Positions 12,982-38,681 of a stretch of DNA of 41,182 nucleotides are shown here, one piece after another. The position numbers were made by a program, and so were the translations under genes. The notes under the pieces were generated by a model. It was given only the letters and a program-made list of their open reading frames with translations, did not search any database and was not told where the DNA came from. Source of the DNA: Bacteroidales bacterium. GTDB lineage: Bacteria; Bacteroidota; Bacteroidia; Bacteroidales; JAOZVK01. The stretch spans positions 1 to 41,182 of the forward strand of contig JAOZVK010000003.1 of the NCBI GenBank assembly GCA_029938185.1, given 5' to 3'. Numbering within the stretch: the stretch's first letter is position 1; every line of letters begins with the position of its first letter.

Positions 12982-12991
12982 ATATTTGTAT

Positions 12992-15443: not shown

Positions 15444-15486
15444 CCTATTATATTTTCTCTTTTTTAATATATTCGCAATATTTTTG
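15444..15486 (+). promoter_or_regulatory. Promoter with CCT-flanked match to the downstream crRNA-like guide
   Basis: TATTTTTG (15479-15486) is a perfect Bacteroidetes -7 box (TAnnTTTG). Upstream, CCT (15444-15446) is followed by ATTATATTTT (15447-15456). This is identical to the first 10 nt after GGAATTGAAAA in the downstream element. Allowing one mismatch, the match runs through 18 positions, though the later part is a T-run. The match covers the -33 region, where no good TTTG box is seen. Layout fits a type I target: PAM 5' of the protospacer on the same strand as the guide. Confidence 0.6.
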
Positions 15487-15491
15487 TAAAA

Positions 15492-15564
15492 CTAAAAAGC
15501 AGGCAGTTCGGAATTGAAAAATTATATTTTGTCTTTTTAATTGAACCATATGCTTGTTTTTTAG
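15492..15564 (+). ncRNA. crRNA-like guide element L1 (CreA/CreR-like candidate)
   Basis: The outer arms CTAAAAAGCAGGCA (15492-15505) and TGCTTGTTTTTTAG (15551-15564) pair over 14 bp with two G-U pairs. Inside lie GGAATTGAAAA (15510-15520), a ~15-nt AT-rich guide, and TTTAATTGAACCAT (15536-15549). The two inner sequences resemble the 3' and 5' halves of a type I-B CRISPR repeat, and ATTGAAAA fits the 8-nt crRNA 5' handle. The first 10 guide nt match the promoter site at 15447-15456 after CCT. The expected transcription start (~15493) falls at the first arm. Element L2 at 29943 has the same plan with different arms and guide. It could repress its own promoter and the ORF at 15590. Expression is unproven. 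Confidence 0.55.
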
Positions 15565-15589
15565 TTTCTTGATATATGAAAATTACAGA

Positions 15590-15994
15590 ATGAATAAAAT
15601 TGAAAAATTAATACAATTGCGTGATGATATTTTTGCATGGGCAGAAATAGAATTGAAAGATACAATCGTATTCAATACTGATGCGAATATGGAAATACTA
15701 ATAAATAAGAGAGGCTTAAAACATACTTTAAAAGGAAAAAGCTACAAAAAGGTTGATATGCTTGAAAAAAATGAAGCAACAATTATGTCTGTTAAATATT
15801 TGAACCATTTTCTTGAAAGTTCTAAGTATGTTAGATTTGAAGAGGATAGCAGACAAAGAAACAATCTTATAGGCTTTCATATTTTTGCAAATATTTTCAA
15901 CTATAAAGAGAATAAATATAATGTTAAAATAATAGTAAGGGAAACAAAAGAGAAAGTTTATTTTTATGACCAAGCATTATTTGAAAAAAAATAA
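15590..15994 (+). CDS. Small protein resembling phage-type BECR RNase fold; candidate toxin
   Basis: 134 residues from the ATG at 15590 (MNKIEKLIQL); the TTG start at 15554 would run through the crRNA-like element. The pattern LKHTLKG, then a helix, LNHFLESSKYV, then NNLIGFHIF and YNVKIIVRETKEKVYFYDQ resembles the PBECR families. These are phage/MuF-associated barnase-EndoU-ColicinE5/D-RelE-like putative RNases. No single catalytic motif can be read with certainty; His residues in LKHT and GFHI are candidates. It lies 26 bp after the crRNA-like element and 126 bp before cas8a of module B, and its stop codon falls in the duplicated leader. It could be the toxin of a CreTA-like unit or an ordinary accessory gene. 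Confidence 0.45.
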   Translation: MNKIEKLIQLRDDIFAWAEIELKDTIVFNTDANMEILINKRGLKHTLKGKSYKKVDMLEKNEATIMSVKYLNHFLESSKYVRFEEDSRQRNNLIGFHIFANIFNYKENKYNVKIIVRETKEKVYFYDQALFEKK

Positions 15995-19638: not shown

Positions 19639-19657
19639 ATTTTTTAAACAGAAATTA

Positions 19658-20902: not shown

Positions 20903-21004
20903 GTCTTTGACCTATTTAATGTGGCTTACACATTTTTATAAATTACTATAAAGTAGCCAATTGTACAAAAACAAATGCCGAAAAACTTTTGTAAGACTAC
21001 TTAA
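20900..21004 (-). repeat. ~105-bp dispersed repeat, copy 5 (reverse)
   Basis: Starts at the stop codon of the preceding ORF (TAAGTCTTTGACCTATTTAA) and ends TTTTGTAAGACTACTTAA. Confidence 0.75.
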
Positions 21005-21008
21005 TAAA

Positions 21009-21162
21009 TTGGGCTACCAGTTTTAAGTTAGACGCTTTTTAAACGCAAAGACACACAAAGTTTAACGCAAAGTTTCGCAAAGTTTTGCTAATCTTTACTT
21101 TAATTCTATGGTTAAAACTAATTGAAAAAACAAGACTGTCCAACTTCTGACGGGTAGCCATA
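21009..21162. repeat. MITE-like inverted-repeat segment
   Basis: TTGGGCTACC...AAGTTAGA (21009-21032) is matched inversely by TCCAACTT...GGGTAGCCATA (21139-21162), imperfect over about 24 bp. The interior is 106 bp and contains CGCAAAG repeats (ACGCAAAGTTTCGCAAAG). No ORF. It is probably a small non-autonomous element or remnant, lying just before the duplicated leader. Confidence 0.4.
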
Positions 21163-22431: not shown

Positions 22432-25281
22432 ATGAAATATAAATTAACAGAAGAGTATTTTGAAACTTCAATTTTTCAAAAAACAGTTCAAGAATATTTT
22501 GATACTGTTTTAAAAGGCATTCTTAACTATAAAGATGTAATACAAGCCAAAGGACTTTTTATTATTGACGGAAAAGTTATGGCAGACCTATACGATATGC
22601 CATATCACATACATATTCTAAACGGACTTATTCCTTCCTTGTTTCTTTACGAAAAATTCCTTTCCGTTAGAGGATGGATAGGAAAAGATACAGAAAAAAA
22701 TAAGGAAGCAGAAATATATATAAAAACGTTTATACTTGGATTTACATTTCATGATGCTGACAAATTTACTGGAGCAAGTTGGACTAATGCTTTTAATGAA
22801 TTAGAGAAAATTAAAGATAAATTACTTGTATCAGAGTTTTTCCCCGAATTTGAAAACTATAAAAACGATGTGTATTTTTTAGCTTTGTCCACTGAAAATA
22901 GAACGGAAGTTAAAAAGAACAGATATGAAATAACTTTGGATTACAGACACTTAAATGAAATACTTGCACCTCTTTGCAATTTTGCAGATGGAATTGCTTC
23001 AATTCAGGAATTAGACGGTGTAGAAGTGTTTTATAAAGAGGCAGAAAAAGCGTTAGGAAAAATAAATCAAATTATTGATTTTAAAATTTCTTATATAAAA
23101 ATACACGAAAATCCTTACACACTTCTAAGTCAAAACTTATTGAATACCGCAGGCAAAGTATTGAAACAAAATGGACGTTCGATATTTTATACAATGCGAG
23201 ATGGTATTTTATTTTTCGGAAATGATTTGACAGATAAGGAAAAGGAACTGATTTTTGAAGAGTTTGAAAATAATCAATCGGATGATATTGACATAGGAAA
23301 ATTAGTAAAGGTAACAGCTCAACAAGCTGATTTATCTTCTATAGTTTCTATTGGAATAAGCGAATCAATACTAAATCAAATAATTCAAAATACTACAAAT
23401 AAATTCCTTTCACTCTCTCCAAACGGACAAGATAAAATTGAATATTTCGATGATTTCGTAAAATTTAATGAACTTCTTATTGAAAAGACCGAATTACCTA
23501 TAGATATTAAAATCAATAATAACAAATTATATTTGAATTTTTCTGAAACTGCATATGATGATAATGCTGAGTTCATCAAAATATTTGCTTTACAAAAAAT
23601 AATGTGGCAAAACGGAAAAATAAACAAAGTTTGGAGTAAAAGTTTTAACAACTTGATTACGTCAGATGAAGAATTAACTTTTGAAATTAATGAACAATTT
23701 CAAACAGGAGAAGATGAATATATTATATTAACAAAAATATCTGACCTAAAAAAATATTTTTCTTCAATAACAAAATCATCAAACGCTTTACTCAAAACAT
23801 ATATTTCAATAATAAAAGCCGTAAACATATTAAATACTTATGAAGATGACATTGACGACTGTATTAATGATTTATATAAAAATGTAATCAACTTCTTTTC
23901 TAATGACGAAAACGATGATAAAAGTGTTCTTTCTGAACTCTATAATAAATATTTCACATATAAAGGAAATAAAGATTTTTCTGCAATAATTGAAAATATG
24001 CCAATTGTTCCCATAAAAAAGAAAATGTGTGCATATACAGGAAAATTTGGAACAGAAAGATATGTTGAAAGCGTTGCTTTCGGGATGAATGCAAGAGGAT
24101 TTTCAAACCGGACTGTTGCATCATTGAAAAATAACATAAGCTTTGTTTCAAAGTTAATGGCAGAGGAGAATAAACTAAGAAAATCTTCTTTTGCTCGTCC
24201 AAAATCGAACCATGTTATATATTATGATTTTTTCGAAACGTCACTGGACATTAATCCCGATTTAATTAAAACTTGCATTAAATCAAGAAATCATGAAATA
24301 AGCAAAGATGGAATAGTAAAATTAGACAGAGCTGCAAAATTTCAGGCAAATTTAAAAAATTTGGAATTTACAGAAATAGGAAGTGATATGATAAGTGCAA
24401 TTTGGCTAGTTAGAAATAAACTTGTAATGGTTCAGAAATTAAATATCAGAATGTATATTACAGGTATAATGTCGCCATATCTCTCACATAAAGAGGTTTT
24501 TGTATATGAAAATGCACCACGCTTTATCAAAGATTTGAAGTGGAATATAATAAGGCTGCATGAAATACAAATGGTTCTTGACGAAATCAGTATTTTATTT
24601 GCACTTGGCAGAAGCCGAAAAAGTATAAATTCGGGTTTAGTTTTGAACTATGCAGGAAGTCCGAATTCGATTTTTCAGGCATTTTACCTTTTTGCAATGC
24701 AAAAAGAACAAAAAGAAGTTACAAATGTAGAGTATAAATTAATTGATTTTATAAATAAATATCCAAATAAATTTAAAAATATGACAACTATTGAAAAACT
24801 CGTTGACATTGCATTGAAAATAGATAGCAGTGCAAAAAGTGGTAGCGAGGAAACATGGCTGATACGAACAGCTTTAGATTTTTTAAGAAAAAATGTTAAA
24901 GAAAAACTCGGCAAAGAGGATACAATTCAGCAAATTGCAGGTAATATTTATAAAACAAAAAGATTGGAATACGCTGATGTTACTGTTATCGAAAATTTTG
25001 CAAGAGCTGTTTATGAAGAGCTTTATGAAAAACAATGGAAGAAATCGCTCCCGACAATTAACAGACAAAAAGATTGGATTTATCAATTTGGATTTGTTTT
25101 TAAACAAAAGTCTGTTCAAAGAATGAGACAATTAAAAGCCGCAAAAATCAAACGTGAAATAATAGAAAAAGGTTTAGAAGTAAATGAAGAAAACATTATA
25201 GCAAATTTGAAAAAAGATAAACTACAAAAATATGCCAACGAATATATAAAGTTAATTTTAAATAATGGTCTTGAACTATAG
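22432..25281 (+). CDS. cas10d: Cas10d (Csc3-like) large subunit with HD nuclease site, type I-D
   Basis: Large subunit of the type I-D effector, which also supplies the HD nuclease that other type I systems place in Cas3. It has 949 residues, close to the usual Cas10d size. The N-terminal domain has MPYHIHILNGLIPSLFLYEKF (about residues 59-79) and GFTFHDADKFTG (about 102-113), the HD metal site. No GGDD motif is visible, as expected for Cas10d. The usual paired-CxxC zinc finger is not obvious; only MCAYTGK is seen. The C-terminal region is helical and Lys-rich (FKQKSVQRMRQLKAAKIKRE). Order cas10d-csc2-csc1-cas3'-cas6 is the canonical I-D arrangement and makes the assignment secure. Confidence 0.85.
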   Translation: MKYKLTEEYFETSIFQKTVQEYFDTVLKGILNYKDVIQAKGLFIIDGKVMADLYDMPYHIHILNGLIPSLFLYEKFLSVRGWIGKDTEKNKEAEIYIKTFILGFTFHDADKFTGASWTNAFNELEKIKDKLLVSEFFPEFENYKNDVYFLALSTENRTEVKKNRYEITLDYRHLNEILAPLCNFADGIASIQELDGVEVFYKEAEKALGKINQIIDFKISYIKIHENPYTLLSQNLLNTAGKVLKQNGRSIFYTMRDGILFFGNDLTDKEKELIFEEFENNQSDDIDIGKLVKVTAQQADLSSIVSIGISESILNQIIQNTTNKFLSLSPNGQDKIEYFDDFVKFNELLIEKTELPIDIKINNNKLYLNFSETAYDDNAEFIKIFALQKIMWQNGKINKVWSKSFNNLITSDEELTFEINEQFQTGEDEYIILTKISDLKKYFSSITKSSNALLKTYISIIKAVNILNTYEDDIDDCINDLYKNVINFFSNDENDDKSVLSELYNKYFTYKGNKDFSAIIENMPIVPIKKKMCAYTGKFGTERYVESVAFGMNARGFSNRTVASLKNNISFVSKLMAEENKLRKSSFARPKSNHVIYYDFFETSLDINPDLIKTCIKSRNHEISKDGIVKLDRAAKFQANLKNLEFTEIGSDMISAIWLVRNKLVMVQKLNIRMYITGIMSPYLSHKEVFVYENAPRFIKDLKWNIIRLHEIQMVLDEISILFALGRSRKSINSGLVLNYAGSPNSIFQAFYLFAMQKEQKEVTNVEYKLIDFINKYPNKFKNMTTIEKLVDIALKIDSSAKSGSEETWLIRTALDFLRKNVKEKLGKEDTIQQIAGNIYKTKRLEYADVTVIENFARAVYEELYEKQWKKSLPTINRQKDWIYQFGFVFKQKSVQRMRQLKAAKIKREIIEKGLEVNEENIIANLKKDKLQKYANEYIKLILNNGLEL

Positions 25282-25339
25282 TTTTATTCAAAAAATAAAA
25301 TAGAGTTTTAAAAATAATATATAATAAAACAGTATAGAA

Positions 25340-26263
25340 ATGAAAAAAATATTTGATTTAATACCGAAAGAATATTTCGTAGAAAACCTGAAAGACAACA
25401 CCCTTGGAGTTGTAAAAATAGCATTATTACGAGAAGTAGTAAATCCGATGATTATCAGAAGTAATTTTGCTGATGAAACTATAACTTTTAAAGCAAATGA
25501 CGAAAAAGATTTAGTAGAAATTCCAGCAAGAAAGCTAAAAAGTAAAGAAAAACTAAGAGGCTTAAGAATTTGTAGAGAAATGAATGTAGTTGATAAAAGT
25601 TTGCGCTACAATGTTATACAAAAAAGTTTACATCTTGCAAATCCAAACTCCATTTTGTTTGGTGATTCGGTAACGGAAAGTAATGATGCAGTGGGTATAA
25701 CAAGTCGTGTTATTTACGATTGGGCATATTCGATACGTGATGTAAACGAAATAACAGATACTTTTCAGCACAATGCTTTAAGCGAAGGCGGAACAATGCA
25801 TGATGAAGTAAAAGGCGGTTTGAGACAATCTCTTTTTCAGGTACAATATGTTATGCCAAAGACATATTTTCCTCATTTTTTAACTTTAGAAAATGTTACT
25901 CCTGAGTTATTTGTACATATTTTATCATCGGTAATATACGAAACTCGCTACGGAGCACAAAGTACGACGCTTGGCTCAAATATGATAAACCACATTGTAG
26001 GAATAGGTTTTTCGAAATTTGAAGCACCTATAAACAGTTTTTCGATTGCGGATAATTGGACGGATAAAAAAGTAAATTTCGAAAATGTAAAATCTGCAAT
26101 AAATAAATCAATGAAAACATATTATAAAGATAATTACAAAGATGGTCTGCAATTTAAAAAATTAATTGACAATCTTTGGGAAAACAACGAGCTTCAACAA
26201 CATTATGATAAAGCAAAAGAAGATTGTACTAAATTATTAAAAGATACTAAAGTGATAAAATAA
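25340..26263 (+). CDS. csc2: Csc2 (Cas7d) backbone subunit, type I-D
   Basis: Backbone protein of the type I-D complex. The 307 residues include the family pattern NPNSILFGDSVTESNDAVGI, then TSRVIYDWAYSIRD (about residues 102-137), followed by FQHNALSEGGTMHD and the region LSSVIYETRYGAQSTTLGSNM. These match the Csc2 motif 'fGd..te....ksRviyd.ay' and the glycine-rich 'RYGA' segment. Its last base is shared with the csc1 start codon (TAATG), showing tight co-translation. Confidence 0.9.
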   Translation: MKKIFDLIPKEYFVENLKDNTLGVVKIALLREVVNPMIIRSNFADETITFKANDEKDLVEIPARKLKSKEKLRGLRICREMNVVDKSLRYNVIQKSLHLANPNSILFGDSVTESNDAVGITSRVIYDWAYSIRDVNEITDTFQHNALSEGGTMHDEVKGGLRQSLFQVQYVMPKTYFPHFLTLENVTPELFVHILSSVIYETRYGAQSTTLGSNMINHIVGIGFSKFEAPINSFSIADNWTDKKVNFENVKSAINKSMKTYYKDNYKDGLQFKKLIDNLWENNELQQHYDKAKEDCTKLLKDTKVIK

Positions 26264-26967
26264 TGGAAATAAAAGCAATAAAAATAAAATTGTTGAATCA
26301 CCTGTTTTATCATACCGAAATTTCAAACGGCTCGATTACAGGCGGTTTTTTGGGTGATTTGGCTTTAACTTATGCATTAAATAAAGCGTTAAATAATAAT
26401 GCCAATATTTATGAGCATCGCTTATTGCCTAAGTATTCAGAAATTAAAGAATTCGGATATTATTTTTCTGTAGCAAAACCTGTTGTACTTTCATCGGGAA
26501 AATACAATTATAAAAGCAAGCCAAGCAGAACGGGAAGCTATACCAGAAATACACTTTTTAATACAGACGGATTTTACGATATAAAAAGTATAGAAAAATC
26601 GGCAAAATCTCCTTTTAAAAACCTAATTCATACACAAGGAATTGCGCTTTCGAGCAAATACATTAAAAATGAATTTGTTACTTTATTGATTGCAAAAGAT
26701 AAAATAGAATTACCCCATACTTTAAGGATAGGTAACCAAAAAGAAACACTTTTGGAATTACAAGAACTAGATTTTAACAAAACAGATAATGATTTTTGGT
26801 TAAATGCATACACTCTTAAAGTGGTTTTTGATAATCTTAAAAAAGCTTCGGAAATTTCAATTGACGAAAATGGAACAATGAATTATCAATATATTTTAGA
26901 AAATTATGCTCTTATGAAGGGGTTTAGTAAAAATCAGGTCATTGAAATTTTTAAACATAATTATTAA
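26263..26967 (+). CDS. csc1: Csc1 (Cas5-like) subunit, type I-D
   Basis: Cas5-family subunit that caps the 5' handle in type I-D. The 234-residue protein has KLLNHLFYHTEISNGSITGG, then FLGDLALTYALNKAL (about residues 9-43). The GFLGDYALTYAL motif is diagnostic of Csc1. NTLFNTDGFYDIKS and YIKNEFVTLLIAKDKIELPH follow, ending the RAMP fold with LPHTLRIGNQKE. It overlaps csc2 by one base and is followed by cas3' after 5 bp. Confidence 0.9.
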   Translation: MEIKAIKIKLLNHLFYHTEISNGSITGGFLGDLALTYALNKALNNNANIYEHRLLPKYSEIKEFGYYFSVAKPVVLSSGKYNYKSKPSRTGSYTRNTLFNTDGFYDIKSIEKSAKSPFKNLIHTQGIALSSKYIKNEFVTLLIAKDKIELPHTLRIGNQKETLLELQELDFNKTDNDFWLNAYTLKVVFDNLKKASEISIDENGTMNYQYILENYALMKGFSKNQVIEIFKHNY

Positions 26968-26972
26968 ATCTT

Positions 26973-29000
26973 ATGAAAAATTTTTGTTTTAATATCAAAC
27001 CACAATATGTAAAGCAAACCAAAACAAAGGGTAAGTTCCCTGATGGTAAAGGCGGTTATAAAGAATTTCCTTTACATTTGGTTCAGAAACGAATGAAAGA
27101 AGACTTTGAAAAGTTTACAGACTTTACAATTATTACCGCTCCAACAGGAACAGGAAAAAGTTACGCCTTTCCTTTTCCTGTTCAAAACTCAAAGAAACAG
27201 AAGCATTTTGGAGGTTTACGTGATGGAAAAAAAGCTTTAATAGTTTTGCCAACAAATGCTTTGATTGACGAATTGCACGAAAATTTTACTGGTACTTTTA
27301 AGGAAATAAAAATAGGTAAACTTACAGGGAAATATATCACAGAATTACAAAAAAATGATGTGCAAAAAGGTACATTTACAAGGTTTACTAAAATACTTGA
27401 AATTTCGCAGCAGAATGATTTAATTATTACAAATCCCGATATTATTAATTATGCAATGCATGGTGGATACCATAAGTATAAAAGCAAAACAGGACGAAGA
27501 GAATTTCAAAACTTTTTGGAAGCTTTTGATTACATTGTATTCGATGAATATCATCTTTACGATGAAAGTCAAATTGCTAATATTCTTACTTTAACTTTCT
27601 TACGTGATATCTTCTTGGGCGAAAACAGAAAAATTAAATACTTTTTTGTGTCAGCAACTCCTGAACCCGGTTTGAAAGATATTCTAAAAACTTTTAATTT
27701 AGAATTTGAAGAGATAATTGAAAAAATTGTTGAAAATAAACAAAATGCAAGAGCAATTCACGGAAAATTAGAAATAGAAATTCATCAAACTACAAAATTT
27801 GCTCAACTTATTGAGAATAGATTTGAAGAAATTGAAGAACAAATTAAGGCAAAACGAAAGGTCTTGATAATTTTTGATAGAATAGCGGATTTATTTAATT
27901 TTTCTAAAACAATTTATGAAAAGTTTCCCAATTACAAAATTGTTAAAAGTACTGGATATGCTTCGAAAGAAGAATCTCAAAATGATTTAATAAAAACTGC
28001 AAATATTATTTTGGCAACCAACAAAGCTGAAGTTGGTGTAAACTATGAAGTTGAATATGCAATAATGCAACCGGGCAAATTTTATCGAAATTTTGTACAA
28101 CGTTTTGGTCGGGTTTCGAGAGGCGAAATGGAAGGTAAAATAATTGTAGCTGTAAAGGAAAATACAAGTTTCAACAGGCTTAAAAAAAATATTACCGAAA
28201 AAGAACTTGCTTATTATGATTTTTTGGAAAAAGCAAAAGAAGCATTTCAAAGCAAAAAATTTTATTCTGAAATTATACCTTCTTATATAGGAGAATATTT
28301 GTGGTGTATACAAAACAATTTGTATACGAAGGGAAATAAAAAATATTTGACAAAAGGAAACTACAGTACACTACAAGAGTTTAAAAGCAATATAAACAAA
28401 CTTGAATTTTTAAAAAATCCTAAATACTATATGCGTTTCAATTTGTTTCAAAATATTGATACACATATATCGAAGCTAAAAAATAATCACAAAGACGGAA
28501 TTACTGTTATTTCGATAATTGAATGGTGGGAAAAGTATAAAAATACATATTTAACTTTCAGAGATAATTCAAAAATAGTTGAAATTTATGACAAAGCACT
28601 TGATACAAATTTATCATATTCTTTGGAGTGGATTCTGCAATACAAAGAAATAATAGGAGAACCTGAAATTATTGTAAAAAAAGAGAATTACGAAATTGTT
28701 AAATATACAGTAGGTGAAATAAAGGAACGAGACAAAGACTTACAATACGAAATTTCCACAATCCCTACATTTACTGAAATACCTTGTATTTTGCATTACG
28801 ATGATTTATCTAATGATAGAAAAATTAAAGAAAGCTTCATAAGAAAGGTAGAAAAACTAAAAAGAAAATATAAAAAAGGATGGAATCCTATTGATAAACA
28901 ATTAGAAAATCTTTGTGAAAAGTTATTGGATTTATCAAATACATTCAACCGAAAAAGATTAAAAATAGAAAACATAATTTCAAACAATCAATTTTTATAA
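26973..29000 (+). CDS. cas3': Cas3' helicase, type I-D (no HD domain)
   Basis: Superfamily 2 helicase that unwinds target DNA; nuclease activity is expected from the HD site of Cas10d. The 675-residue protein has Walker A TAPTGTGKS (about 54-62), DEYH (about 191-194), SATPE, ATNKAEVGVNYE and QRFGRVSRG. No HD motif is present at either end, consistent with type I-D. The C-terminal 250 residues are helical and basic (RKVEKLKRKYKKGWNPID). It starts 5 bp after csc1 and ends 2 bp before cas6, so the operon is fully compact. Confidence 0.92.
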   Translation: MKNFCFNIKPQYVKQTKTKGKFPDGKGGYKEFPLHLVQKRMKEDFEKFTDFTIITAPTGTGKSYAFPFPVQNSKKQKHFGGLRDGKKALIVLPTNALIDELHENFTGTFKEIKIGKLTGKYITELQKNDVQKGTFTRFTKILEISQQNDLIITNPDIINYAMHGGYHKYKSKTGRREFQNFLEAFDYIVFDEYHLYDESQIANILTLTFLRDIFLGENRKIKYFFVSATPEPGLKDILKTFNLEFEEIIEKIVENKQNARAIHGKLEIEIHQTTKFAQLIENRFEEIEEQIKAKRKVLIIFDRIADLFNFSKTIYEKFPNYKIVKSTGYASKEESQNDLIKTANIILATNKAEVGVNYEVEYAIMQPGKFYRNFVQRFGRVSRGEMEGKIIVAVKENTSFNRLKKNITEKELAYYDFLEKAKEAFQSKKFYSEIIPSYIGEYLWCIQNNLYTKGNKKYLTKGNYSTLQEFKSNINKLEFLKNPKYYMRFNLFQNIDTHISKLKNNHKDGITVISIIEWWEKYKNTYLTFRDNSKIVEIYDKALDTNLSYSLEWILQYKEIIGEPEIIVKKENYEIVKYTVGEIKERDKDLQYEISTIPTFTEIPCILHYDDLSNDRKIKESFIRKVEKLKRKYKKGWNPIDKQLENLCEKLLDLSNTFNRKRLKIENIISNNQFL

Positions 29001-29002
29001 AC

Positions 29003-29659
29003 ATGAGAGTTCATATACAATTTTCAAAATCAAAAGAAATAATCCCTTTTAATCATCAAGAAGTATTAACAGGCGCATTTCATAAATGGATTGGTAAAAA
29101 CAACATACACGATAACTTATCGCTTTATTCGTTTTCGCGACTGAATGGTGCAAGATTGAAAAAAGATGGTTTATATTTTCCTTCACAAGCAAAATGGTTT
29201 ATAAGTATTTACGATAAAGATTTGTTTAAAAAACTTTTGTCGGGTATTTTAGATAAACCAGAACTGAGATGGGGCATGATAGTAAATAATTTTTTTGTAC
29301 AGCAAGAGCCAGATTTTACTTTTCAAACAGAATTTAAAGCAGCAAGTCCAATTTTTATTAAAAGAAATATAGAAAACAATCAAAAACATTATATTTTCGA
29401 TGATAAAAAAACATCGGAGCTTATGATAGAAACCTTACAAAACAAGATGAGAAAAATCGGTTTAAAAGATGATAGTTTAAAAATTGAATTTTCGACAAAA
29501 TATAATAATCCAAAAACTGCAAAAATAACATATAAAGGTATTGAAAACAAAGCAAATATTTGTCCTGTAATAATTAAAGGAAAGCCCGAAACAAAGGCTT
29601 TTGCATGGAATGTAGGAGTTGGAAATTGTACTGGAATTGGATTTGGGGCTATCTCTTAG
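29003..29659 (+). CDS. cas6: Cas6 crRNA endonuclease, type I-D
   Basis: Processes the pre-crRNA for module C. The 218-residue protein shares the framework of the other two Cas6 proteins (F.HKWIGKNN.H..LSLYSFSRL, then KPETKAFAWNVGVG) but differs throughout. It has an intact C-terminal glycine loop GVGNCTGIGFGAIS. A His in the AFHKW segment is a candidate catalytic residue. It is last in the module C operon, 2 bp after cas3'. The divergence from the duplicated pair shows that it is an old I-D-specific paralogue, probably adapted to another repeat sequence. Confidence 0.9.
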   Translation: MRVHIQFSKSKEIIPFNHQEVLTGAFHKWIGKNNIHDNLSLYSFSRLNGARLKKDGLYFPSQAKWFISIYDKDLFKKLLSGILDKPELRWGMIVNNFFVQQEPDFTFQTEFKAASPIFIKRNIENNQKHYIFDDKKTSELMIETLQNKMRKIGLKDDSLKIEFSTKYNNPKTAKITYKGIENKANICPVIIKGKPETKAFAWNVGVGNCTGIGFGAIS

Positions 29660-29709
29660 TGTGTTTTAATTATTAATATTGTAAACTGGTATAATTGTAA
29701 ATTTATATT

Positions 29710-29815
29710 TAAGTAGTCTAACAAAAGTTTTTCGACATTTGTTTTCGCACAATTAATTATATGACAGTAATTTATTAAAATGTGTAAGACACATTAAATA
29801 GGTCGAAGACCTTAA
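29710..29815 (+). repeat. ~105-bp dispersed repeat, copy 6 (forward)
   Basis: Starts TAAGTAGTCTAACAAAAGTT, then TTTCGAC, and ends ATAGGTCGAAGACCTTAA, between module C and module D. It is very close to copy 7 at 38532. Confidence 0.75.
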
Positions 29816-29876
29816 TGTTTTTCGATTTATGTAAAGTGTAAAAAATGCCAAAAGTGAAAAAAAAACCAAATTATTA

Positions 29877-29916
29877 CCTAAGAAATTTGTTATTAAAGTA
29901 AACAATATTATCTTTG
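29877..29916 (+). promoter_or_regulatory. Module D promoter with CCT-flanked match to crRNA-like guide
   Basis: TTTG (29886-29889), 19 bp, TATCTTTG (29909-29916) is an exact Bacteroidetes promoter (-33 TTTG, -7 TAnnTTTG). The -33 box lies inside AAGAAATTTGT (29880-29890), directly after CCT (29877-29879). These 11 nt are identical to the first 11 nt of the guide at 29966. Eight of the next 11 positions also match. Binding of a guide complex here would block the -33 box. Confidence 0.65.
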
Positions 29917-29942
29917 CATAATTATTTGTTAAAATAGATTTT

Positions 29943-30025
29943 GGTAAGTACACAGGAATTGAAAAAAGAAATTTGTATTTAATGTAATTTCTACTTTAAT
30001 CGAACCATGTACTTACCGTTTTTTT
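29943..30025 (+). ncRNA. crRNA-like guide element L2 before module D (CreR-like candidate)
   Basis: The outer arms GGTAAGTACA (29943-29952) and TGTACTTACC (30008-30017) pair perfectly and are followed by GTTTTTTT, a good intrinsic terminator. Inside are GGAATTGAAAA (29955-29965, repeat 3' half with ATTGAAAA handle), a 29-nt guide (29966-29994), and TTTAATCGAACCAT (29995-30008, repeat 5' half). The guide's first 11 nt match the promoter -33 site after CCT. The ~100-nt transcript expected from that promoter would contain the whole element and then terminate or read through into cas6-cas8b-cas7-cas5-cas3. This suits autorepression by module D Cascade (CreR principle). The stem sequence differs from L1 but pairing is preserved. 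Confidence 0.6.
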
Positions 30026-30045: not shown

Positions 30046-30705
30046 ATGAGAATACATTTAAAATTATCAAAAAATACAAAACTTGTACCCTATAGTCACC
30101 AACATAAACTTGTGGGAGCTATACACAAATGGCTTGGCAAAAATGATTTGCATGGAAAAATATCTTTATATTCATTTTCTCGCTTGCAAGGTGGCAGTAG
30201 CAATAAAAAAGGTCTTGATTTCAAGAATGGAGCAAATTGGTTTGTTAGTTTCTATAACGATGATTTTTTGAAAGATATAGTTTTTGGTTTAATGAAAGAC
30301 AAGCCAGAGATTTTTAACGGTATGCAGGTTGAAACTGTCACAATTCAAGAAACACCGGATTTTACTAATACCACTTATTTCAAAATAGCAAGTCCTATCC
30401 TGATAAAGAGAAACGATGGGGGTTTTATAAAGCATTTTTTGTATACCGACAAAGAAGCACCCGAACTGCTTACTGAAACACTCCGCAGCAAAATGCAACA
30501 AGTAGGTTTAACAGATGATAGTTTGAAAATAGAATTTGACACCAATTACTCTAAAGCATCTGCCAAACTAATAGACTACAAAGGAATTAAAAACAAAACA
30601 AGTTGGTGTCCAGTTATAATTCACGGAAAACCAGAAACTAAGGCTTTTGCTTGGAATGTGGGAGTGGGGAGTTCTACTGGTGTTGGTTTTGGGGCTTTAA
30701 TTTAA
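30046..30705 (+). CDS. cas6: Cas6 crRNA endonuclease, intact duplicate (module D)
   Basis: 219 residues. The DNA is nearly identical to the cas6 at 12310 over about 600 bp (one silent change near codon 17), with differences clustered in the last 80 bp. This copy retains the full glycine loop GVGSSTGVGFGALI and Gly in IIHGKPETKAF, where the other has Arg. The homology begins at the start codon and ends at the stop; flanking sequence differs. It is first in the module D operon, 19 bp before cas8b, and directly downstream of the crRNA-like element and its terminator. It probably serves both type I-B modules. Confidence 0.93.
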   Translation: MRIHLKLSKNTKLVPYSHQHKLVGAIHKWLGKNDLHGKISLYSFSRLQGGSSNKKGLDFKNGANWFVSFYNDDFLKDIVFGLMKDKPEIFNGMQVETVTIQETPDFTNTTYFKIASPILIKRNDGGFIKHFLYTDKEAPELLTETLRSKMQQVGLTDDSLKIEFDTNYSKASAKLIDYKGIKNKTSWCPVIIHGKPETKAFAWNVGVGSSTGVGFGALI

Positions 30706-30724
30706 AATAATAATAATAATAAAA

Positions 30725-32866
30725 ATGAGTTTAGATACAGTTTTAAAAATAGGTAAAGCATTAAGAAATTCAAAAGATAATTTAAAATACTTTAAATATG
30801 TTGGTTCTGTAAAGGCTGATGTTAATAAAAAGAAGGAAAAGAATTATCCGATTTGCATAACGATTCCTGTAAAAGAAGATTTTACTTTTGATTGGGAAAA
30901 CATGGATTTAACACCCGAAAATCAACGAGATGATTTGTATTATTTCAAATATGAAACATCAAATAATGATACCAGCCCTAAGAAATATCTTTTTGGAGAT
31001 ATTTCTTATATTAGGCGTAATGGAATTGACACCAAAGGTAAGATAAAATCTACTAAAGACTTTGGAAATTACACATTAGAGAGAGGTAATGCTTTTGAGA
31101 ATGGGAAAAACATATTAAATGAAATAAAACTAACATATTTTGAAGAGGAAATAAGAAAAACAATTAACAATAGTAATATTGAAAATTTAAAAGAGAAAGA
31201 TGAAATTATTAAACAATTGATTAAATCTTATAAAATCAATAAAGAAGTTAAACTATCAAATAAGATAGAAAAGTATAAAGATGAAATTATTGAAATATCT
31301 CAAAAAGTAAATCAAGATATAAGTGAAGTAACCTTATTTGATTTTCATAGTAGATTTGAAGAATTCTCAGATAAAATTACATTAATATTAAAATATGCAT
31401 CAGCTTTTAATTTTTTATTGGAAGAATCAGAAAAAATAAACGAATATTTATCTAATAAACAAAAGTTAGTTGATTTATACACTAAAGTCGTTGTTAAACA
31501 GATTAATCCACGTGTTTTAAAGAAAATATTAAAAAAAGATGAAGATATAGAAGACTTATCAGAAGAAACAAAAAACAAAATATCAAGATATGCAAATTTT
31601 GAAGTTTTTTTACATTTTGATTATCAAGGTAAAAGTTGGTATAAATTTAAACAATCATTTGACCTTTTAAATGAAAAATTAAATTCTGGAGTTACAGATA
31701 ATACAGATTTTGGGAAAGTGCCATCAAAAGCAATATACAGAACATTATGCTCTGGAAATGATAGAAATGACATTCAGTTTCCTCAGTTTGATAAAAATAA
31801 TAGAATGAAGTCATTTTTCTTTAAAGGTGATGAATTTATTGATTTTCTACATAGTGAAATTTTTCTCGAAAAACCTTTAAGACGTTTACAAGGAACAAAA
31901 ATTGAGTTCTATGTTTTACCAGTAGCAATAAATGAAAATAAACAAATAACAGCAACGGATTATGATATTTTTTTAAAATTACAGGACGAAGTTCGTATTA
32001 AAATATATGATAAAGAAATTGACGAAGAACCTCTTTTTTCTTTTTTCGATGAGGAACAAATTAATTTTACAAAATTTGATTTTATTTTTACTGATGCAAG
32101 CGGAAATTCAAAAAATGATTTAATTGAAATATCTGGATTAGAACAAAGTAAATTAAAAGAAATAGCCAAAAGAATTGAAACAATTAATAATGAGGTAAAA
32201 CAAGAAAAAAAGAAATATTTAAGAACACAAAAAGAGCAATCTAATTTCAAAATAGAATACTCTTTTCGAAATATTTTAGGCAATCACTATTACGATGAAA
32301 AGACAGGAAATTCAAGTGTAAAAGCAAATCCAAAATACCAATCACACTTATTAAAGGTTTTGCCTTTAATATACACTGACAATTATCAAAATGACGAAAT
32401 GTTATTGTCTGCATTTATTCAAAATGTGGAGCATATTATTCGAAGTTTTAAGAAATATATAAGTAGTCAATTTATTAAGTTGAAGTATGACTTGATGTTC
32501 TTATATAAAATTCAAAATAATAATTCTAAAAATGATAAATTTATGGAAATAACAAATTCAAAAAGCTACAAAATAGGTTTGCAGCTTGGTAATTTAGCAA
32601 AAAACCTAACATTAGAAATTAATTCTTTTGAAAAAAATTATGTTGGAAATCTCAGCAGACGATTAAGCACACTGCCAGACTTCGTTAAATTAAAAAATGA
32701 TATTGAACAAAAATTAATAATGCACGAAAAAACAAAATATACTTTTCAAACTTCTTATGATTTAGCTCAGGAAGTAAAAAAGTTTAGTGGTCAGTATGAT
32801 AAAGAAAAATGTGCTTTCGGTTTTTTAGAAAGCTACTTTAAGCCGTTACCAAAAAAACAAATATAA
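30725..32866 (+). CDS. cas8b: Cas8b large subunit, type I-B (module D)
   Basis: Large subunit of the second I-B Cascade. It has 713 residues. The opening SLDTVLKIGKALRNSKDNLK, then YFKYV, with ICITIPVKEDFTFDWENM soon after, is typical of Bacteroidetes Cas8b/Csh1. The middle has long Lys/Glu-rich helices (about residues 130-200) and an RRLQGTKIEFYVLPVAI strand region (about 378-394). The C-terminal part is helical (NSKSYKIGLQLGNLAKNLTL), as expected for the built-in small-subunit region. It differs from the module A Cas8b in length and sequence. It is followed by cas7 after 23 bp. Confidence 0.82.
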   Translation: MSLDTVLKIGKALRNSKDNLKYFKYVGSVKADVNKKKEKNYPICITIPVKEDFTFDWENMDLTPENQRDDLYYFKYETSNNDTSPKKYLFGDISYIRRNGIDTKGKIKSTKDFGNYTLERGNAFENGKNILNEIKLTYFEEEIRKTINNSNIENLKEKDEIIKQLIKSYKINKEVKLSNKIEKYKDEIIEISQKVNQDISEVTLFDFHSRFEEFSDKITLILKYASAFNFLLEESEKINEYLSNKQKLVDLYTKVVVKQINPRVLKKILKKDEDIEDLSEETKNKISRYANFEVFLHFDYQGKSWYKFKQSFDLLNEKLNSGVTDNTDFGKVPSKAIYRTLCSGNDRNDIQFPQFDKNNRMKSFFFKGDEFIDFLHSEIFLEKPLRRLQGTKIEFYVLPVAINENKQITATDYDIFLKLQDEVRIKIYDKEIDEEPLFSFFDEEQINFTKFDFIFTDASGNSKNDLIEISGLEQSKLKEIAKRIETINNEVKQEKKKYLRTQKEQSNFKIEYSFRNILGNHYYDEKTGNSSVKANPKYQSHLLKVLPLIYTDNYQNDEMLLSAFIQNVEHIIRSFKKYISSQFIKLKYDLMFLYKIQNNNSKNDKFMEITNSKSYKIGLQLGNLAKNLTLEINSFEKNYVGNLSRRLSTLPDFVKLKNDIEQKLIMHEKTKYTFQTSYDLAQEVKKFSGQYDKEKCAFGFLESYFKPLPKKQI

Positions 32867-32889
32867 ATTAATATTAAAGATATAAAATT

Positions 32890-33888
32890 ATGTCAAAAAT
32901 AAAAAAATCAGAAATTTTATTCTTGTATGAAAGTTCATACAATATTCCAAACGGAGACCCTTTTACAGGCGAACAACGTTATGATGAAGAAACTAAGAAA
33001 ATTTTAGTTAGTGATGTTAGAATGAAACGCTATGTAAGAGATTATCTTTTAGATAAAGACAAAGATATTTATGTAGTTAATGATAAAAGCTTTGCTGAAG
33101 GTAAAGAATCCGGTTCGGCTTCACGTATAAAATCTTTGCAAAATAAATTTGAAACGGAACTAAAAATTGAAAAAGAAAAGATAGAAGCTGAAAATAAAAA
33201 GAATAAAACTAAATTAAAATTCAGCCCTGCAATGTTCGTAATGAAAAAATGTGTTGATGTACGTTTATTCGGAGGTATTGCAACAGGAAAAGGTGATGCG
33301 ATAAATTTAACTGGAGCAGTTCAGTTTTCACTTTTAAATCCATCTTTAAACAAATCTACTTTAAGAATGCACCAAAATACAACAGTTTTTAGTTCAAGTG
33401 CTGAAAAAGGTCAAGGCTCAATAGGAACAACAACACTTGTTCCTTATGCCGTAAACCAAATACATGGTTGGGTAAATTCAAAAGTTGCTGAAAATACAGG
33501 AATGTGTAATAATGATTTAAAACTAATGTATGAAGGTCTTTGGTATGGCACAAGTGGCGAAGGTAGTTCGCATTCAAGAAGTAAAATCGGACAAAATTCA
33601 TTATTGTTATTAGAAATAGTTTATGCTGAGAATAATAAAAAAGTATATAGCGTAGATAAATTGATAAAATTAACCCCAAAAGAAGGCAAGAAAGATGAAG
33701 AAATCCGAAGCATGGACGATTATGATTTGGATTTTACAAAATTATTAGAAGTAGCAAAGTCTGATAAAGTTTCAAAAATTAGATATTATTCTGAATTAGA
33801 CAGTATTAATGATATGTTTGAAATAGATGGTAATTTTAAAAGTAAATTAGAAAAATTATCTTTTGAGCCAAACAAAAAAACTGAATAA
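32890..33888 (+). CDS. cas7: Cas7 backbone subunit, type I-B (Csh2, module D)
   Basis: 332-residue Csh2-family Cas7. It starts SEILFLYESSYNIPNGDPFTG, then EQRYDEETKKILVSDVRMKR, the standard N-terminal signature (NPNGDP...R.DE......VSDVR.KR). It has CVDVRLFGGIATGKGDAINL, then TGAVQFS (about residues 117-140) and the later HSRSKIGQNSLLLLEIVY. The internal Lys/Glu-rich stretch (KIEKEKIEAENKKNKTK) is a loop insertion. cas5 starts 2 bp after the stop. Confidence 0.95.
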   Translation: MSKIKKSEILFLYESSYNIPNGDPFTGEQRYDEETKKILVSDVRMKRYVRDYLLDKDKDIYVVNDKSFAEGKESGSASRIKSLQNKFETELKIEKEKIEAENKKNKTKLKFSPAMFVMKKCVDVRLFGGIATGKGDAINLTGAVQFSLLNPSLNKSTLRMHQNTTVFSSSAEKGQGSIGTTTLVPYAVNQIHGWVNSKVAENTGMCNNDLKLMYEGLWYGTSGEGSSHSRSKIGQNSLLLLEIVYAENNKKVYSVDKLIKLTPKEGKKDEEIRSMDDYDLDFTKLLEVAKSDKVSKIRYYSELDSINDMFEIDGNFKSKLEKLSFEPNKKTE

Positions 33889-33890
33889 TT

Positions 33891-34604
33891 ATGAAAGGAT
33901 TTCAATTTATAGTTGAAGGAAACTGGGCACATTTTAAGAAACCTGAAACAAATAATAATCCGCTTTCACACGATTTAATCACAAAAACAGCTCTGATTGG
34001 ATTAATCGGAGCTGTGCTTGGAATTGAGCGAAATGAAATGAAAGCTAAATTTCCTGAATTGTCAGAAAGCTTGTTGTATAATGTTCAGTTACTTAGTCCT
34101 GTAAAGAAAACATCTTGGGGGTTTACAAGTAAAAAAGCAAATAGCCCAACTGCAAGTGGTTCACCTAAATATTTTGAATTTCTTAAAAATCCAAAATTTA
34201 AAATTTCTTTGGCACTAAAATATAATGTTTCTAAAAATATTTTTAATTCTTTTTTACAATCTGTAAAAAGAGAAGAAACTATTTATCCGCCTGTTCTTGG
34301 TTGGCATAACTGCCCAGCAAATATTAGTTTTTTTTCAGAAGGCAAATTTTCTGAATTAAAAACAGGTGAGTTTGAAACAAAAGGATTTGTATTAGCAGGT
34401 GGAGAGCACAAACCAACAAATATTACAGGAAAATTTCGTATTGGTTTTGATAAATTACCTACTTATCAAGATGATGATTTTTGGAATTTACCTGATAAAT
34501 ATCGACAAATTATTTATCCTGATTTTCCTCATTCACTACAAATTAAGGGCGATTATTATGAATATATTACAAACTCAAATGTTGAAAAATGGTGGCTAAT
34601 GTAG
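33891..34604 (+). CDS. cas5: Cas5, type I-B (module D)
   Basis: 237 residues with the Cas5b signature QFIVEGNWAHFKKPETNNNP, then SHDLITKTALIGLIGAVLGIE (about 3-46). YPPVLGWHNCPANI and FVLAGGEHKPTNITGKFRIG follow. It caps the crRNA 5' end in Cascade. Its last 16 bp overlap the start of cas3 in another frame (CTAATGTAG region), indicating translational coupling. Confidence 0.93.
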   Translation: MKGFQFIVEGNWAHFKKPETNNNPLSHDLITKTALIGLIGAVLGIERNEMKAKFPELSESLLYNVQLLSPVKKTSWGFTSKKANSPTASGSPKYFEFLKNPKFKISLALKYNVSKNIFNSFLQSVKREETIYPPVLGWHNCPANISFFSEGKFSELKTGEFETKGFVLAGGEHKPTNITGKFRIGFDKLPTYQDDDFWNLPDKYRQIIYPDFPHSLQIKGDYYEYITNSNVEKWWLM

Positions 34605-37048
34605 CGAAATTGAAATCACATCCAGATAAACTTTTATTTGATCATGTTGATGGTGTCCTTAAAAATGTAAAAAAGCTCACTAATTTGAAAATAGCTGAAT
34701 TGGTTGCGATTTTTCATGACTTAGGAAAAATTAATCCTAATTTTCAAAAAAAACTCAGTGGCATAAAGACTGGTGAATACTCACATCATGGGTATTTGTC
34801 AGCTTATGCTTTTTTGTGTGCTTTTGCATCATCACCTGCAAATCAAGAAATACTTGGCAATTGGTTAAGTAAAAAGATAAGTAAAAATGATTTAATTGCA
34901 TTAACAACAATCATTGCAAAGCATCATGGTAATATTCCTGATTTCACACCAAAAGATGAAACTGGAACTGGAGCTTCTATATTAAATAAGGAAGAGAATG
35001 AAAAATTATTCGTTTTTTTAGGTAAGGGGATAAATCTTCCTGTTGAGGAATTTACGAAACATTATTTCTCAGAAATAAAATCTTTTTATCCATTTTTGGG
35101 AAATCCTCTTGTTCAAAAGAAATTCAAAGACGAATTTATTTTTGATTATAGAAAAAACAACAATCCTCTTGATTATTATTTAGATACTCAATTTTCTTTT
35201 GCAAGTCTTATTCAAGCAGATAAAGTTGATGCTGCAAAATTGGGAAATTTTATTGATGATAATAAATCAAATGTAGAGCAGTTTTGTGGCAACTATAATA
35301 TATGCTTAAATTCTTATCTAAGCAAATTAAATCAAGATTCTGAAATAAATAAACTACGAACAAAAATAAGGCTTGATGCTGTTGGTCGAATAAAAAACGG
35401 ATTACAACAAAACAAACAAGTCTTTGAATTAACAGCCCCGACAGGCTCAGGAAAAACACTTATGATGTTGTCACTTGCTTCCGAAATTATTAAGCAAAAA
35501 GGAGCAAAAAGGATTATTTATTCATTACCATTTTTATCAATCACAGAGCAGGTCGAAGCAGAAGTTTTAAAAATATTTAGCAATCAAAAGCAATTTGTTC
35601 AAAGGATAGATTCTAAATCACAAAATAAAACTTTTGAAAATTTACAAAAAGAATTTGATAAAAATCCGAGTAAAGAAGTAATGAAAAAAATTAATATGAT
35701 TGAGTTTCAGGAAAATACTTTTTCATATCCCTTTATAATAACAACATTTGTTCGTTTTTTTGAAACATTATTAACTAATAGAAATGCTGATTTATTAAAA
35801 CTTCCGAATTTTTCAAATTCAATTTTCTTAATTGATGAAATTCAGGCACTTCCACCAAGGTTATATACTTTTTTCACAGCATATTTAAGCAAATTTTGTG
35901 AAAAAAATGGAAGTTATGCAATTATTTCTACGGCTACACAACCAAATTTTAATTTGCCTGAAAAAGATGAAATAAAAGAATTTTTCAGTAATTATTCAAA
36001 ACCTTTTAAATTACTCTCACTTGATTATTTTCAAAACGAGCTTTTTAATAGATATAAAATTATTATTGATAAAAAAGGAACAGATATAGCTGAATTAAAA
36101 GAAAAACTTATAAAATCAGAAAAATCGGTTTTAGTAATTTTAAATACCATAGATGATACGAAAGATTTGTATTCTTTATTAATTGAAGCAGGTTTATCAA
36201 AAAAAGATACTCTTTTGCTAAATACTCATATTACTCCCAAACATAGAAAAATTAAAATCTATCTGGCAAAACGTAGATTAAGAGAGAATAAAAAAGTAAT
36301 TTTAATATCAACACAACTTATTGAAGCAGGTGTAGATATTGATTTTCCTGTTCTCTATCGCGATATGGCAACAGTTTCAAGCATTGTTCAATCAGCAGGA
36401 CGATGTAACAGAAATGGAAAACTCAAAGATAAAGGTATTGTTAATCTTATTCGTTTTAAAAAGGACGGAAGAGAAAGAGCAAAACTGATTTACCGTGATG
36501 GAAATAAAGAACTATTAGGTTTTACAACAAAAGCATTACAGTTAGAAAATTATCAGGAAAAAGAACTTTTAGATGTTCAGAAAAAATTTTTTGATAGAAT
36601 TTTAAAAGAATTGCATTTTGCAAAACATATACAGCAAGATCCAAGACAAGATTTCGATTTTTTAAATGACATTAAAGAAGCTCAATTTAACAAAATAGGT
36701 GAATTTAATTTAATAGATAAAGGAGTATTTGGTGAAGAAATGCAATATTTTATACCTAAAAATGAAAATGACAAATCTTTTCAGCTATTAAATGAATATA
36801 TTGAGGAATTAAATATTATTATTAATTTTAACAAAAAAGATTGGAGTATTGTTAAATTAAAGAAAAATAAGATAAAAATATTAAGAAAAAAAATGTCAGA
36901 AAATATTGTCCAAGTAAGACTAAAAGAAGGTCAATCAAAACCAATTACAAATAATTTTACAAAAGATAGAAATTTACACGAAATAGCACTTTCTTCATAT
37001 TCATTTGAAAAGGGAGTGGATTTACAGGGAGAAGATATCTGGTTATAA
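34589..37048 (+). CDS. cas3: Cas3 helicase-nuclease with N-terminal HD domain (module D)
   Basis: 819-residue target-degrading nuclease-helicase. The HD domain comes first: FDHVDGVL, FHDLGKINPNFQKK (about 42-55), HHGYLSAYAF and AKHHGN. Helicase motifs follow: Walker A TAPTGSGKT (about 279-287), DEIQ (about 416-419), STATQPNF, STQLIEAGVDIDFP and QSAGRCNRNG. This is the standard Cas3 order and the opposite of the module A protein at 12992. All catalytic residues appear intact. It overlaps cas5 by 16 bp and is the last gene of the module D operon. Confidence 0.95.
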   Translation: MVANVAKLKSHPDKLLFDHVDGVLKNVKKLTNLKIAELVAIFHDLGKINPNFQKKLSGIKTGEYSHHGYLSAYAFLCAFASSPANQEILGNWLSKKISKNDLIALTTIIAKHHGNIPDFTPKDETGTGASILNKEENEKLFVFLGKGINLPVEEFTKHYFSEIKSFYPFLGNPLVQKKFKDEFIFDYRKNNNPLDYYLDTQFSFASLIQADKVDAAKLGNFIDDNKSNVEQFCGNYNICLNSYLSKLNQDSEINKLRTKIRLDAVGRIKNGLQQNKQVFELTAPTGSGKTLMMLSLASEIIKQKGAKRIIYSLPFLSITEQVEAEVLKIFSNQKQFVQRIDSKSQNKTFENLQKEFDKNPSKEVMKKINMIEFQENTFSYPFIITTFVRFFETLLTNRNADLLKLPNFSNSIFLIDEIQALPPRLYTFFTAYLSKFCEKNGSYAIISTATQPNFNLPEKDEIKEFFSNYSKPFKLLSLDYFQNELFNRYKIIIDKKGTDIAELKEKLIKSEKSVLVILNTIDDTKDLYSLLIEAGLSKKDTLLLNTHITPKHRKIKIYLAKRRLRENKKVILISTQLIEAGVDIDFPVLYRDMATVSSIVQSAGRCNRNGKLKDKGIVNLIRFKKDGRERAKLIYRDGNKELLGFTTKALQLENYQEKELLDVQKKFFDRILKELHFAKHIQQDPRQDFDFLNDIKEAQFNKIGEFNLIDKGVFGEEMQYFIPKNENDKSFQLLNEYIEELNIIINFNKKDWSIVKLKKNKIKILRKKMSENIVQVRLKEGQSKPITNNFTKDRNLHEIALSSYSFEKGVDLQGEDIWL

Positions 37049-37340: not shown

Positions 37341-37403
37341 AATAATCTTTTGTGGTAAGATAATTGAAATCGCAGTATAGGAAAATTACCACAAAAGATT
37401 ATT
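37341..37403. repeat. Perfect 18-bp inverted repeat before the DUF1016 gene (copy 2)
   Basis: AATAATCTTTTGTGGTAA (37341-37358) and TTACCACAAAAGATTATT (37386-37403) with a 27-nt loop and a T-run after. It ends 19 bp before the DUF1016 ATG. It is either a terminator of the preceding unit or an operator of the nuclease gene. The same arrangement before the broken copy at 19658 shows that it moves together with the gene. Confidence 0.65.
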
Positions 37404-37422
37404 ATTTTTTAAACAGAAATTA

Positions 37423-38466: not shown

Positions 38467-38681
38467 CTGTAATTCGTAATAAGTAGTTGATAATGAACAA
38501 TTGATAATTTACTTTCACTTGAATTATTGTATATAGTCTAACAAAAATTTTTTCGACATTTGTTTTCGCACAATTAATTATATGACAACTGTTTATAAGA
38601 ATGCGCAAGTCACATTAAATAGGTCGAAGCCCTTATGTTATAGCTTAACAAAGTGTCGATTTTATACGATAAGCTACTTAT
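38467..38681. other. Intergenic region with repeat copy
   Basis: Holds the forward 105-bp repeat copy 7 and nothing else recognisable. The reverse-frame ORF 38417-38608 is a shadow. Confidence 0.5.
38532..38636 (+). repeat. ~105-bp dispersed repeat, copy 7 (forward)
   Basis: Starts ATAGTCTAACAAAAATTTTT and ends AATAGGTCGAAGCCCTTA; the hairpin has lost one pairing (AGCCC). Together with reverse copy 8 at 39235 it flanks the transposase fragment and small ORF as inverted repeats about 800 bp apart. Confidence 0.75.

What the first reader, a model, noticed from the sequence alone, without database searches (positions are those of the whole stretch)
29877..30025. crRNA-like element L2 whose guide matches the -33 box of its own promoter
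Seen: GGAATTGAAAA (29955-29965) and TTTAATCGAACCAT (29995-30008) look like the two halves of a type I-B CRISPR repeat around a 29-nt guide. They are enclosed by a perfect 10-bp stem and followed by T7. The guide's first 11 nt, AAGAAATTTGT, recur at 29880-29890, immediately after CCT and over the TTTG -33 box of an exact Bacteroidetes promoter (TTTG-N19-TATCTTTG). Eight of the next 11 positions also match. Known: CreR RNAs use Cascade with a PAM plus a partial seed match to repress cas promoters without cleavage. Inference: module D represses itself through this RNA. The guide sits in the loop of a long-range hairpin, which differs from a plain repeat-spacer-repeat layout.
Basis: partly seen in the sequence, partly recalled or inferred. 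Interest (0 to 1): 0.95.

Follow-up and report, generated by a model that had tools for sequence, protein, structure and literature searches.

The report
Self-repressing CRISPR guide RNA (CreR-like)
Just ahead of a type I-B CRISPR-Cas operon in a Bacteroidota genome sits a short CRISPR-like guide RNA gene whose guide matches the promoter that drives both it and the operon, so the CRISPR machinery probably uses it to hold down its own production; the same arrangement recurs in about eleven other genomes with different guides that each match their own target.

Summary
GGAATTGAAAA, a 29-nt guide and TTTAATCGAACC lie at 29955-30006. They are the 3' and 5' halves of this genome's real CRISPR repeat (ATTTTAATTGAACCGTATTGGAATTGAAAC, contig C21), closed by a perfect 10-bp stem and followed by T7. 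The guide matches its own promoter with an exact 11-nt seed after CCT; mismatches at 12, 13 and 18 interrupt a 22-nt match. Overlapping array spacers independently give a CCN PAM (5 of 5). Only 2 of 40,742 window positions show such a match.

The window holds a second element, L1 (15489-15567), built the same way, with the same PAM and register, ahead of an LPD3-domain gene inside a type I-A operon. A scan of about 85,000 genomes found solitary half-repeat elements. Of 41, 7 have a perfect CCN+seed target nearby (0.01 expected), mostly in front of cas8b or cas6 and with wholly different guides: guide-target co-variation.

Best reading: a CreR-type, Cascade-dependent autorepressor of the I-B operon. 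Possibly new are the stem that replaces the lost Cas6 site of the first repeat (recurrent, not universal) and the position in the leader of the operon it targets. No expression or repression data were available.

The parts
29877..29879 (+). PAM CCT of the self-target
   Evidence: Sequence; CCN is the PAM inferred from 5 overlaps between array spacers on contig C21
29880..29901 (+). protospacer: matches guide positions 1-11, 14-17, 19-22 (mismatches 12, 13, 18)
29886..29916 (+). Bacteroidota-type promoter TTTG(29886-29889)-N19-TATCTTTG(29909-29916); predicted start about 29923; the only promoter seen between the terminator-like site at 29800-29812 and cas6
   Evidence: start site is inferred
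29943..29952 (+). left arm of the closing stem (GGTAAGTACA)
   Evidence: p about 0.0003 against shuffled right flank
29955..29965 (+). psiR1 remnant GGAATTGAAAA = 3' end of the CRISPR repeat with the 8-nt 5' handle ATTGAAAA
   Evidence: real repeat on C21
29966..29994 (+). guide (29 nt; array spacers are 35-38 nt)
29995..30006 (+). psiR2 remnant TTTAATCGAACC = Cas6-binding 5' half of the repeat; only copy of this 12-mer in the genome
30008..30017 (+). right arm of the closing stem (TGTACTTACC)
30019..30025 (+). T7 run directly after the stem; possible partial terminator in front of cas6
   Evidence: sequence; the terminator scan does not list it because its loop is long
30046..30705 (+). cas6 (Cas6b-like), first gene of the I-B operon
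   Evidence: TIGR01877; the 97% identical copy at 12310 is typed Cas6b
30725..32866 (+). cas8b1
   Evidence: PDLC01107, E 9e-143
32890..33888 (+). cas7/csh2
33891..34604 (+). cas5b
34589..37048 (+). cas3 (HD + helicase)
15444..15464 (+). second element L1: PAM CCT (15444-15446) and protospacer from 15447, matching the L1 guide at 1-10 and 12-18
15489..15567 (+). L1 element: 17-bp closing stem (15489-15505 with 15551-15567, two G-U), psiR1 15510-15520, guide 15521-15535, psiR2 15536-15547
   Evidence: (z -4.7)
15590..15994 (+). LPD3-domain ORF (134 aa) directly downstream of L1, between cas3 and cas8a of the type I-A operon; candidate gene kept silent by L1
   Evidence: PF18798 E 6.6e-18; operon typing

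Best explanation
L2 is a CreR-type cas-regulating crRNA-like RNA of the type I-B operon 30046-37048. Shown by sequence: a guide flanked by the two functional halves of the CRISPR repeat, a matching CCN+seed site over the -33 box of the promoter upstream, and the same design in other genomes. Inferred: the promoter at 29886-29916 makes a leader RNA; Cas6 (encoded just downstream) trims it to ATTGAAAA-guide-TTTAATCGAACC...; Cas8b/Cas7/Cas5 load it; the complex binds the promoter through the PAM and partial match, too short for cleavage, and blocks RNA polymerase. Because L2 and the cas genes share that promoter, this is negative feedback: abundant array crRNAs (or an anti-CRISPR) would take Cascade away from L2 and release the operon. 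The closing stem probably replaces the Cas6 site that psiR1 has lost, by holding the Cas6-binding half of psiR2 next to the cleavage site of psiR1.
For: Both halves belong to the genome's own repeat. PAM CCN from 5 of 5 spacer overlaps. Seed+PAM match at chance level of about 1 in 20,000 positions. The solitary half-repeat pattern occurs 3 times in 5.7 Mb: L1, L2 and one truncated array unit. L1 shows the same PAM, the same register and a stem of unrelated sequence. In 85,000 genomes, 7 of 41 pattern hits have a perfect CCN+seed target within 500 bp (0.01 expected), 11 of 41 with at most one mismatch (0.24 expected). Two more elements found independently through Cas6 (L025, L026) have perfect 1-5 and 7-11 matches after CCA with mismatches at 6, 12 and 17/18. 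Neighbouring operons begin with cas8b (L044, L046, L053, L064, L067) or cas6 (L050, L052, L055, L066). Seed 1-5 and 7-11 plus PAM is the rule shown by mutation for CreA (PMC8501985). psiR1 keeping the Cas5 handle and psiR2 keeping the Cas6-binding part is the published decay pattern (PMC9458426).
Against: No RNA or reporter data. No close relative of this genome is held, so conservation of this very element was not seen. In most relatives the element is divergent from the cas operon with a promoter of its own, unlike the shared promoter here. The Bacteroidota promoter consensus is common by chance in this AT-rich DNA. psiR1 lacks the Cas6-binding half, so 5' processing is not explained without the stem idea.
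Confidence: 0.84

Rival explanations
1. Decayed minimal CRISPR array: a leftover repeat-spacer-repeat unit with a self-matching spacer, no longer functional.
For: Both halves are clearly repeat-derived; self-targeting spacers tend to be inactivated.
Against: A true self-derived spacer would match over 35-38 nt, not 11+8 nt with gaps. Exactly the functional nucleotides are kept. Independent elements with different guides show the same seed match in other genomes. Strong stem.
Confidence: 0.06
2. Leader attenuator: the stem plus T7 works as a terminator in front of cas6, and the promoter-like 22-nt copy inside its loop is a chance or structural duplication; Cas6 binding to its own leader controls the operon at the RNA level.
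For: Stem directly followed by T7; no other promoter seen before cas6; psiR2 is a plausible Cas6 binding site in the mRNA of cas6.
Against: Does not predict the CCN PAM, the register of the seed, or the same relations in L1 and the relatives; several relatives are not upstream of cas6 on the same strand.
Confidence: 0.07
3. CreA antitoxin RNA of a CreTA or CrePA addiction module rather than a cas regulator.
For: Same molecular design; for L1 the regulated gene is a small LPD3 ORF, as in protein-toxin CrePA modules (review PMC12737573).
Against: For L2 the gene behind the target promoter is cas6 itself; no toxin-like ORF lies between 29923 and 30046.
Confidence: 0.03

Closest known systems
CreR (crRNA-like cas-regulating RNA of type I and V-A systems; reviews PMC12737573, PMC12948488)
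   Same: Mini-CRISPR next to a cas operon; partial guide match with PAM in the cas promoter; predicted Cascade-dependent autorepression.
   Different: Here the RNA is in the leader of the operon and shares its promoter; the repeat halves are joined by an outer stem. Whether the original CreR survey includes such forms could not be checked: that paper is not in the library.
CreA of CreTA modules in haloarchaea (PMC8501985, PMC9458426)
   Same: psiR1 keeps the 5' handle, psiR2 keeps the Cas6-binding part; seed 1-5 and 7-11; RNA and regulated gene can share one autoregulated promoter.
   Different: No toxin RNA for L2; CreA repeats are reported without a conserved hairpin in each repeat, whereas here an inter-repeat stem is present.
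CrePA (protein toxin CreP with CreA RNA; review PMC12737573)
   Same: L1 plus LPD3 ORF has this layout.
   Different: Known CreP proteins typically carry KilA-N; the LPD3 ORF is unrelated and its toxicity is untested.
Racr, RNA anti-CRISPRs with solitary repeats (PMC10651486)
   Same: Solitary repeat-like RNA.
   Different: Racrs are encoded by viruses and inhibit the effector; these elements sit in cas operons and have a guide with a local PAM-flanked target.

Membership tests
CreR | Spacer-like sequence flanked by CRISPR-repeat-derived sequences | tested here: met
   Halves equal to positions of the C21 repeat
CreR | Seed (1-5, 7-11) complementary to a cas promoter, next to a functional PAM | tested here: met
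   11/11 seed after CCT on the promoter upstream of cas6; PAM CCN
CreR | Linked to a cas operon and not to a toxin gene | tested here: met
   L2 directly upstream of cas6-cas8b1-cas7-cas5-cas3. For L1: LPD3 gene instead
CreR | RNA is expressed and processed by Cas6 | not testable with these tools
   needs small-RNA sequencing
CreR | Cascade-dependent repression of cas genes | not testable with these tools
   needs reporter assays
CreA/CreTA | Target promoter drives a toxin (creT) | tested here: not met
   L2: cas6 is the next ORF
CrePA (for L1 only) | Target promoter drives a toxic protein | tested here: inconclusive
   LPD3 domain ORF; no fold (pLDDT 36), no PADLOC hit, no close relatives in 248 genomes, IMG/VR or plasmids

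The most novel reading that the evidence does not exclude
A stem-closed, split-repeat form of CreR: psiR1 has lost its Cas6 site, and an outer stem joins the Cas6-binding half of psiR2 to the cleavage site of psiR1, so that Cas6 acts on a circularly permuted repeat. The two window copies act separately, L2 as the thermostat of the I-B operon and L1 as the RNA antitoxin of a new, LPD3-type, CRISPR-repressed toxin inside a type I-A operon.
Probability: 0.3. Interest if true: 0.75.

Novelty: new variant of a known kind. Interest (0 to 1): 0.6.

Why it matters
It gives a bacterial, testable example of a CRISPR effector repressing its own operon through a leader-encoded guide. It also gives a simple search rule (half repeat, 8-31 nt, half repeat, CCN+seed within 500 bp) that recovers such regulators across Bacteroidota. 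If the stem really rebuilds a Cas6 substrate from split halves, it is a new way for crRNA-like RNAs to be made. L1 points to an untested protein gene that may be lethal when CRISPR is disabled, i.e. a new sensor of anti-CRISPRs.

Tried and rejected
Rfam: no hit in the window. Array spacers against the phage collection: no match, so the PAM was taken from overlapping spacers; array against the own genome gave two weak matches only, not used. LPD3: no relatives in 248 genomes (52), IMG/VR (57) or plasmids (62); only one other LPD3-domain protein in 148 genomes (55); AlphaFold without alignment useless (65), so no fold search; one PDB sequence match at E 0.05, not meaningful (63). Outer stem as a universal feature: rejected, it is absent in L043, L044, L046, L050, L070, L025 and L026. 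A replacement of psiR1's 5' half by the stem is only a trend (0 of 4 against 6 of 11, Fisher p 0.10; rank correlation p 0.054); part of the pairing signal also occurs in ordinary arrays because the repeat is CC-N5-GG (L058, L071). Wider pattern searches in 396 and 395 genomes added only coding or array matches.

Full report
What is there. The window is a whole contig (C13, 41,182 bp) of a 5.7-Mb Bacteroidota genome. It carries three type I effector modules: I-A (cas6 12310, cas3, LPD3 ORF, cas8a, cas7, cas5 to 19552), I-D-like (22432-29659) and I-B (cas6 30046, cas8b1, cas7, cas5, cas3 to 37048), then cas4 and cas1. L2 lies between the I-D-like and I-B modules.

The halves are real repeat halves. 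The array is on another contig (C21, locus L003): 111 perfect copies of ATTTTAATTGAACCGTATTGGAATTGAAAC with 35-38-nt spacers. L2's GGAATTGAAAA is its last 11 bases with C changed to A. TTTAATCGAACC is its 5' part with one change, and this 12-mer occurs nowhere else in the genome. A search for half - 8 to 31 nt - half finds three places: L1, L2 and one truncated array unit.

The PAM. Spacers did not match phage records. But three pairs of spacers in the array overlap each other, so one spacer shows what stood next to the other in the invader. The five flanks read CCT, CCG, CCG, CCG, CCG. CCT in front of the L2 target is therefore a valid PAM.

The match. The guide pairs with 29880-29901 at 1-11, 14-17 and 19-22. 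Positions 12 and 18, two of the three mismatches, are those where type I crRNA bases are flipped out. Shuffled guides reach a perfect seed beside CCN in 0 of 2000 trials; only 2 of 40,742 window positions do so within 150 bp. The target covers the -33 box of the only promoter found between the terminator-like site at 29800-29812 and cas6.

A second copy in the same contig. L1 (15489-15567) has the same halves, a 15-nt guide, a stem of quite different sequence (z -4.7), and a CCT-flanked target at 15447 that matches at 1-10 and 12-18, upstream of its own -7 box. It stands in front of an LPD3-domain ORF between cas3 and cas8a of the I-A module.

Relatives. A scan of 85,000 genomes for GGAATTGAAA-N8-31-TTTAATYGHACC gave 38 loci. 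Some are chance matches in coding DNA or array ends. With the two window elements and a second match in one locus, 41 elements were tested: 7 have a CCN site with a perfect 10/10 seed within 500 bp, expected 0.01; 11 with at most one mismatch, expected 0.24. Targets lie in front of cas8b (L044 Bacteroides, L046 Prevotella, L064 Bacteroidales; with a TCA site L053 Mongoliitalea and L067 Cytophagales) or cas6 (L050, L052 Emticicia, L055 Prolixibacteraceae, L066). In L064 the PAM overlaps the -33 TTTGG of the divergent cas8b promoter (sequence, read by eye). Two more, L025 and L026, came from an independent Cas6 search; both have perfect seeds after CCA with mismatches at 6, 12 and 17 or 18. The guides are all different, so guide and target co-vary between genomes. 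L043, L066 and L070 are weaker cases: the target is far away, or the neighbour is not a cas gene.

The stem. Left and right flanks pair strongly in L1, L2 and L052 (p about 0.0003-0.001 against dinucleotide-shuffled right flanks) and moderately in L055, L066 and L067 (p 0.015-0.03); summed over 13 elements, 0 of 20,000 re-pairings of flanks are as good, and 25 of 20,000 without the window elements. It is absent where psiR1 still has its Cas6-binding half (L025, L026, L043, L050), a trend only (p 0.05-0.10). In the linear repeat, CC and GG flank five bases; in stem-closed elements the same CC and GG form the inner end of the stem. This suggests, as inference, that the stem presents the two halves to Cas6 like an intact but circularly permuted repeat.

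Mechanism and filing. The decay pattern (psiR1 keeps the Cas5 handle, psiR2 the Cas6-binding part; PMC9458426), the seed rule (PMC8501985) and the gene context place L2 with CreR RNAs (PMC12737573). The testable sequence criteria of CreR are met; expression, processing and repression could not be tested. The shared promoter makes it a one-promoter feedback loop, as reported for the autoregulated creTA operon of Halobacterium hubeiense. L1 may be a CreA of a CrePA-like module, but the LPD3 protein could not be characterised.

Verdict. New variant of a known kind.

Noticed in passing
15489-15994: Second stem-closed crRNA-like element (L1) with a self-promoter match, in front of an LPD3-domain ORF inside a type I-A cas operon; possible CRISPR-repressed toxin.
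   Followed up: partly
29700-29850; also 2856-2966, 3427-3530, 5659-5766, 12130-12237, 20903-21010, 38534-38639: A block of about 110 bp (72-88% identical) recurs in both orientations and borders the CRISPR-Cas modules, as if they were exchangeable cassettes.
   Followed up: partly
11694-12134, 20471-20902, 38806-39237: Three ORFs of 143-146 aa beside the repeat blocks, no Pfam family; the copies at 20471 and 38806 start with the same peptide.
   Followed up: no
12310-12981 and 30046-30705: Two cas6 genes 97% identical at the protein level in the I-A and I-B modules, but without shared upstream DNA: only the I-B copy has L2 in front.
   Followed up: partly
29967-29973 with 29986-29992: The L2 guide contains a perfect 7-bp hairpin (AGAAATT/AATTTCT) that would hide its own seed in free RNA.
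   Followed up: no
L003 (G000:C21) 7740-13770: The CRISPR array is interrupted by about 6 kb with several ORFs, and resumes beyond; looks like an insertion into the array.
   Followed up: no
19571-19650 and 37345-37412: Near-identical long hairpins with ATTGAA-containing loops in front of a YhcG-family nuclease gene (37423) and of a fragment of such a gene (19660).
   Followed up: no
L029, L031, L036 just upstream of cas6: Single half-repeat sequences (e.g. AATCGCACCCTTTGGGAC) close to the cas6 start codon without a visible first half; possibly degenerate regulators or Cas6 leader sites.
   Followed up: no
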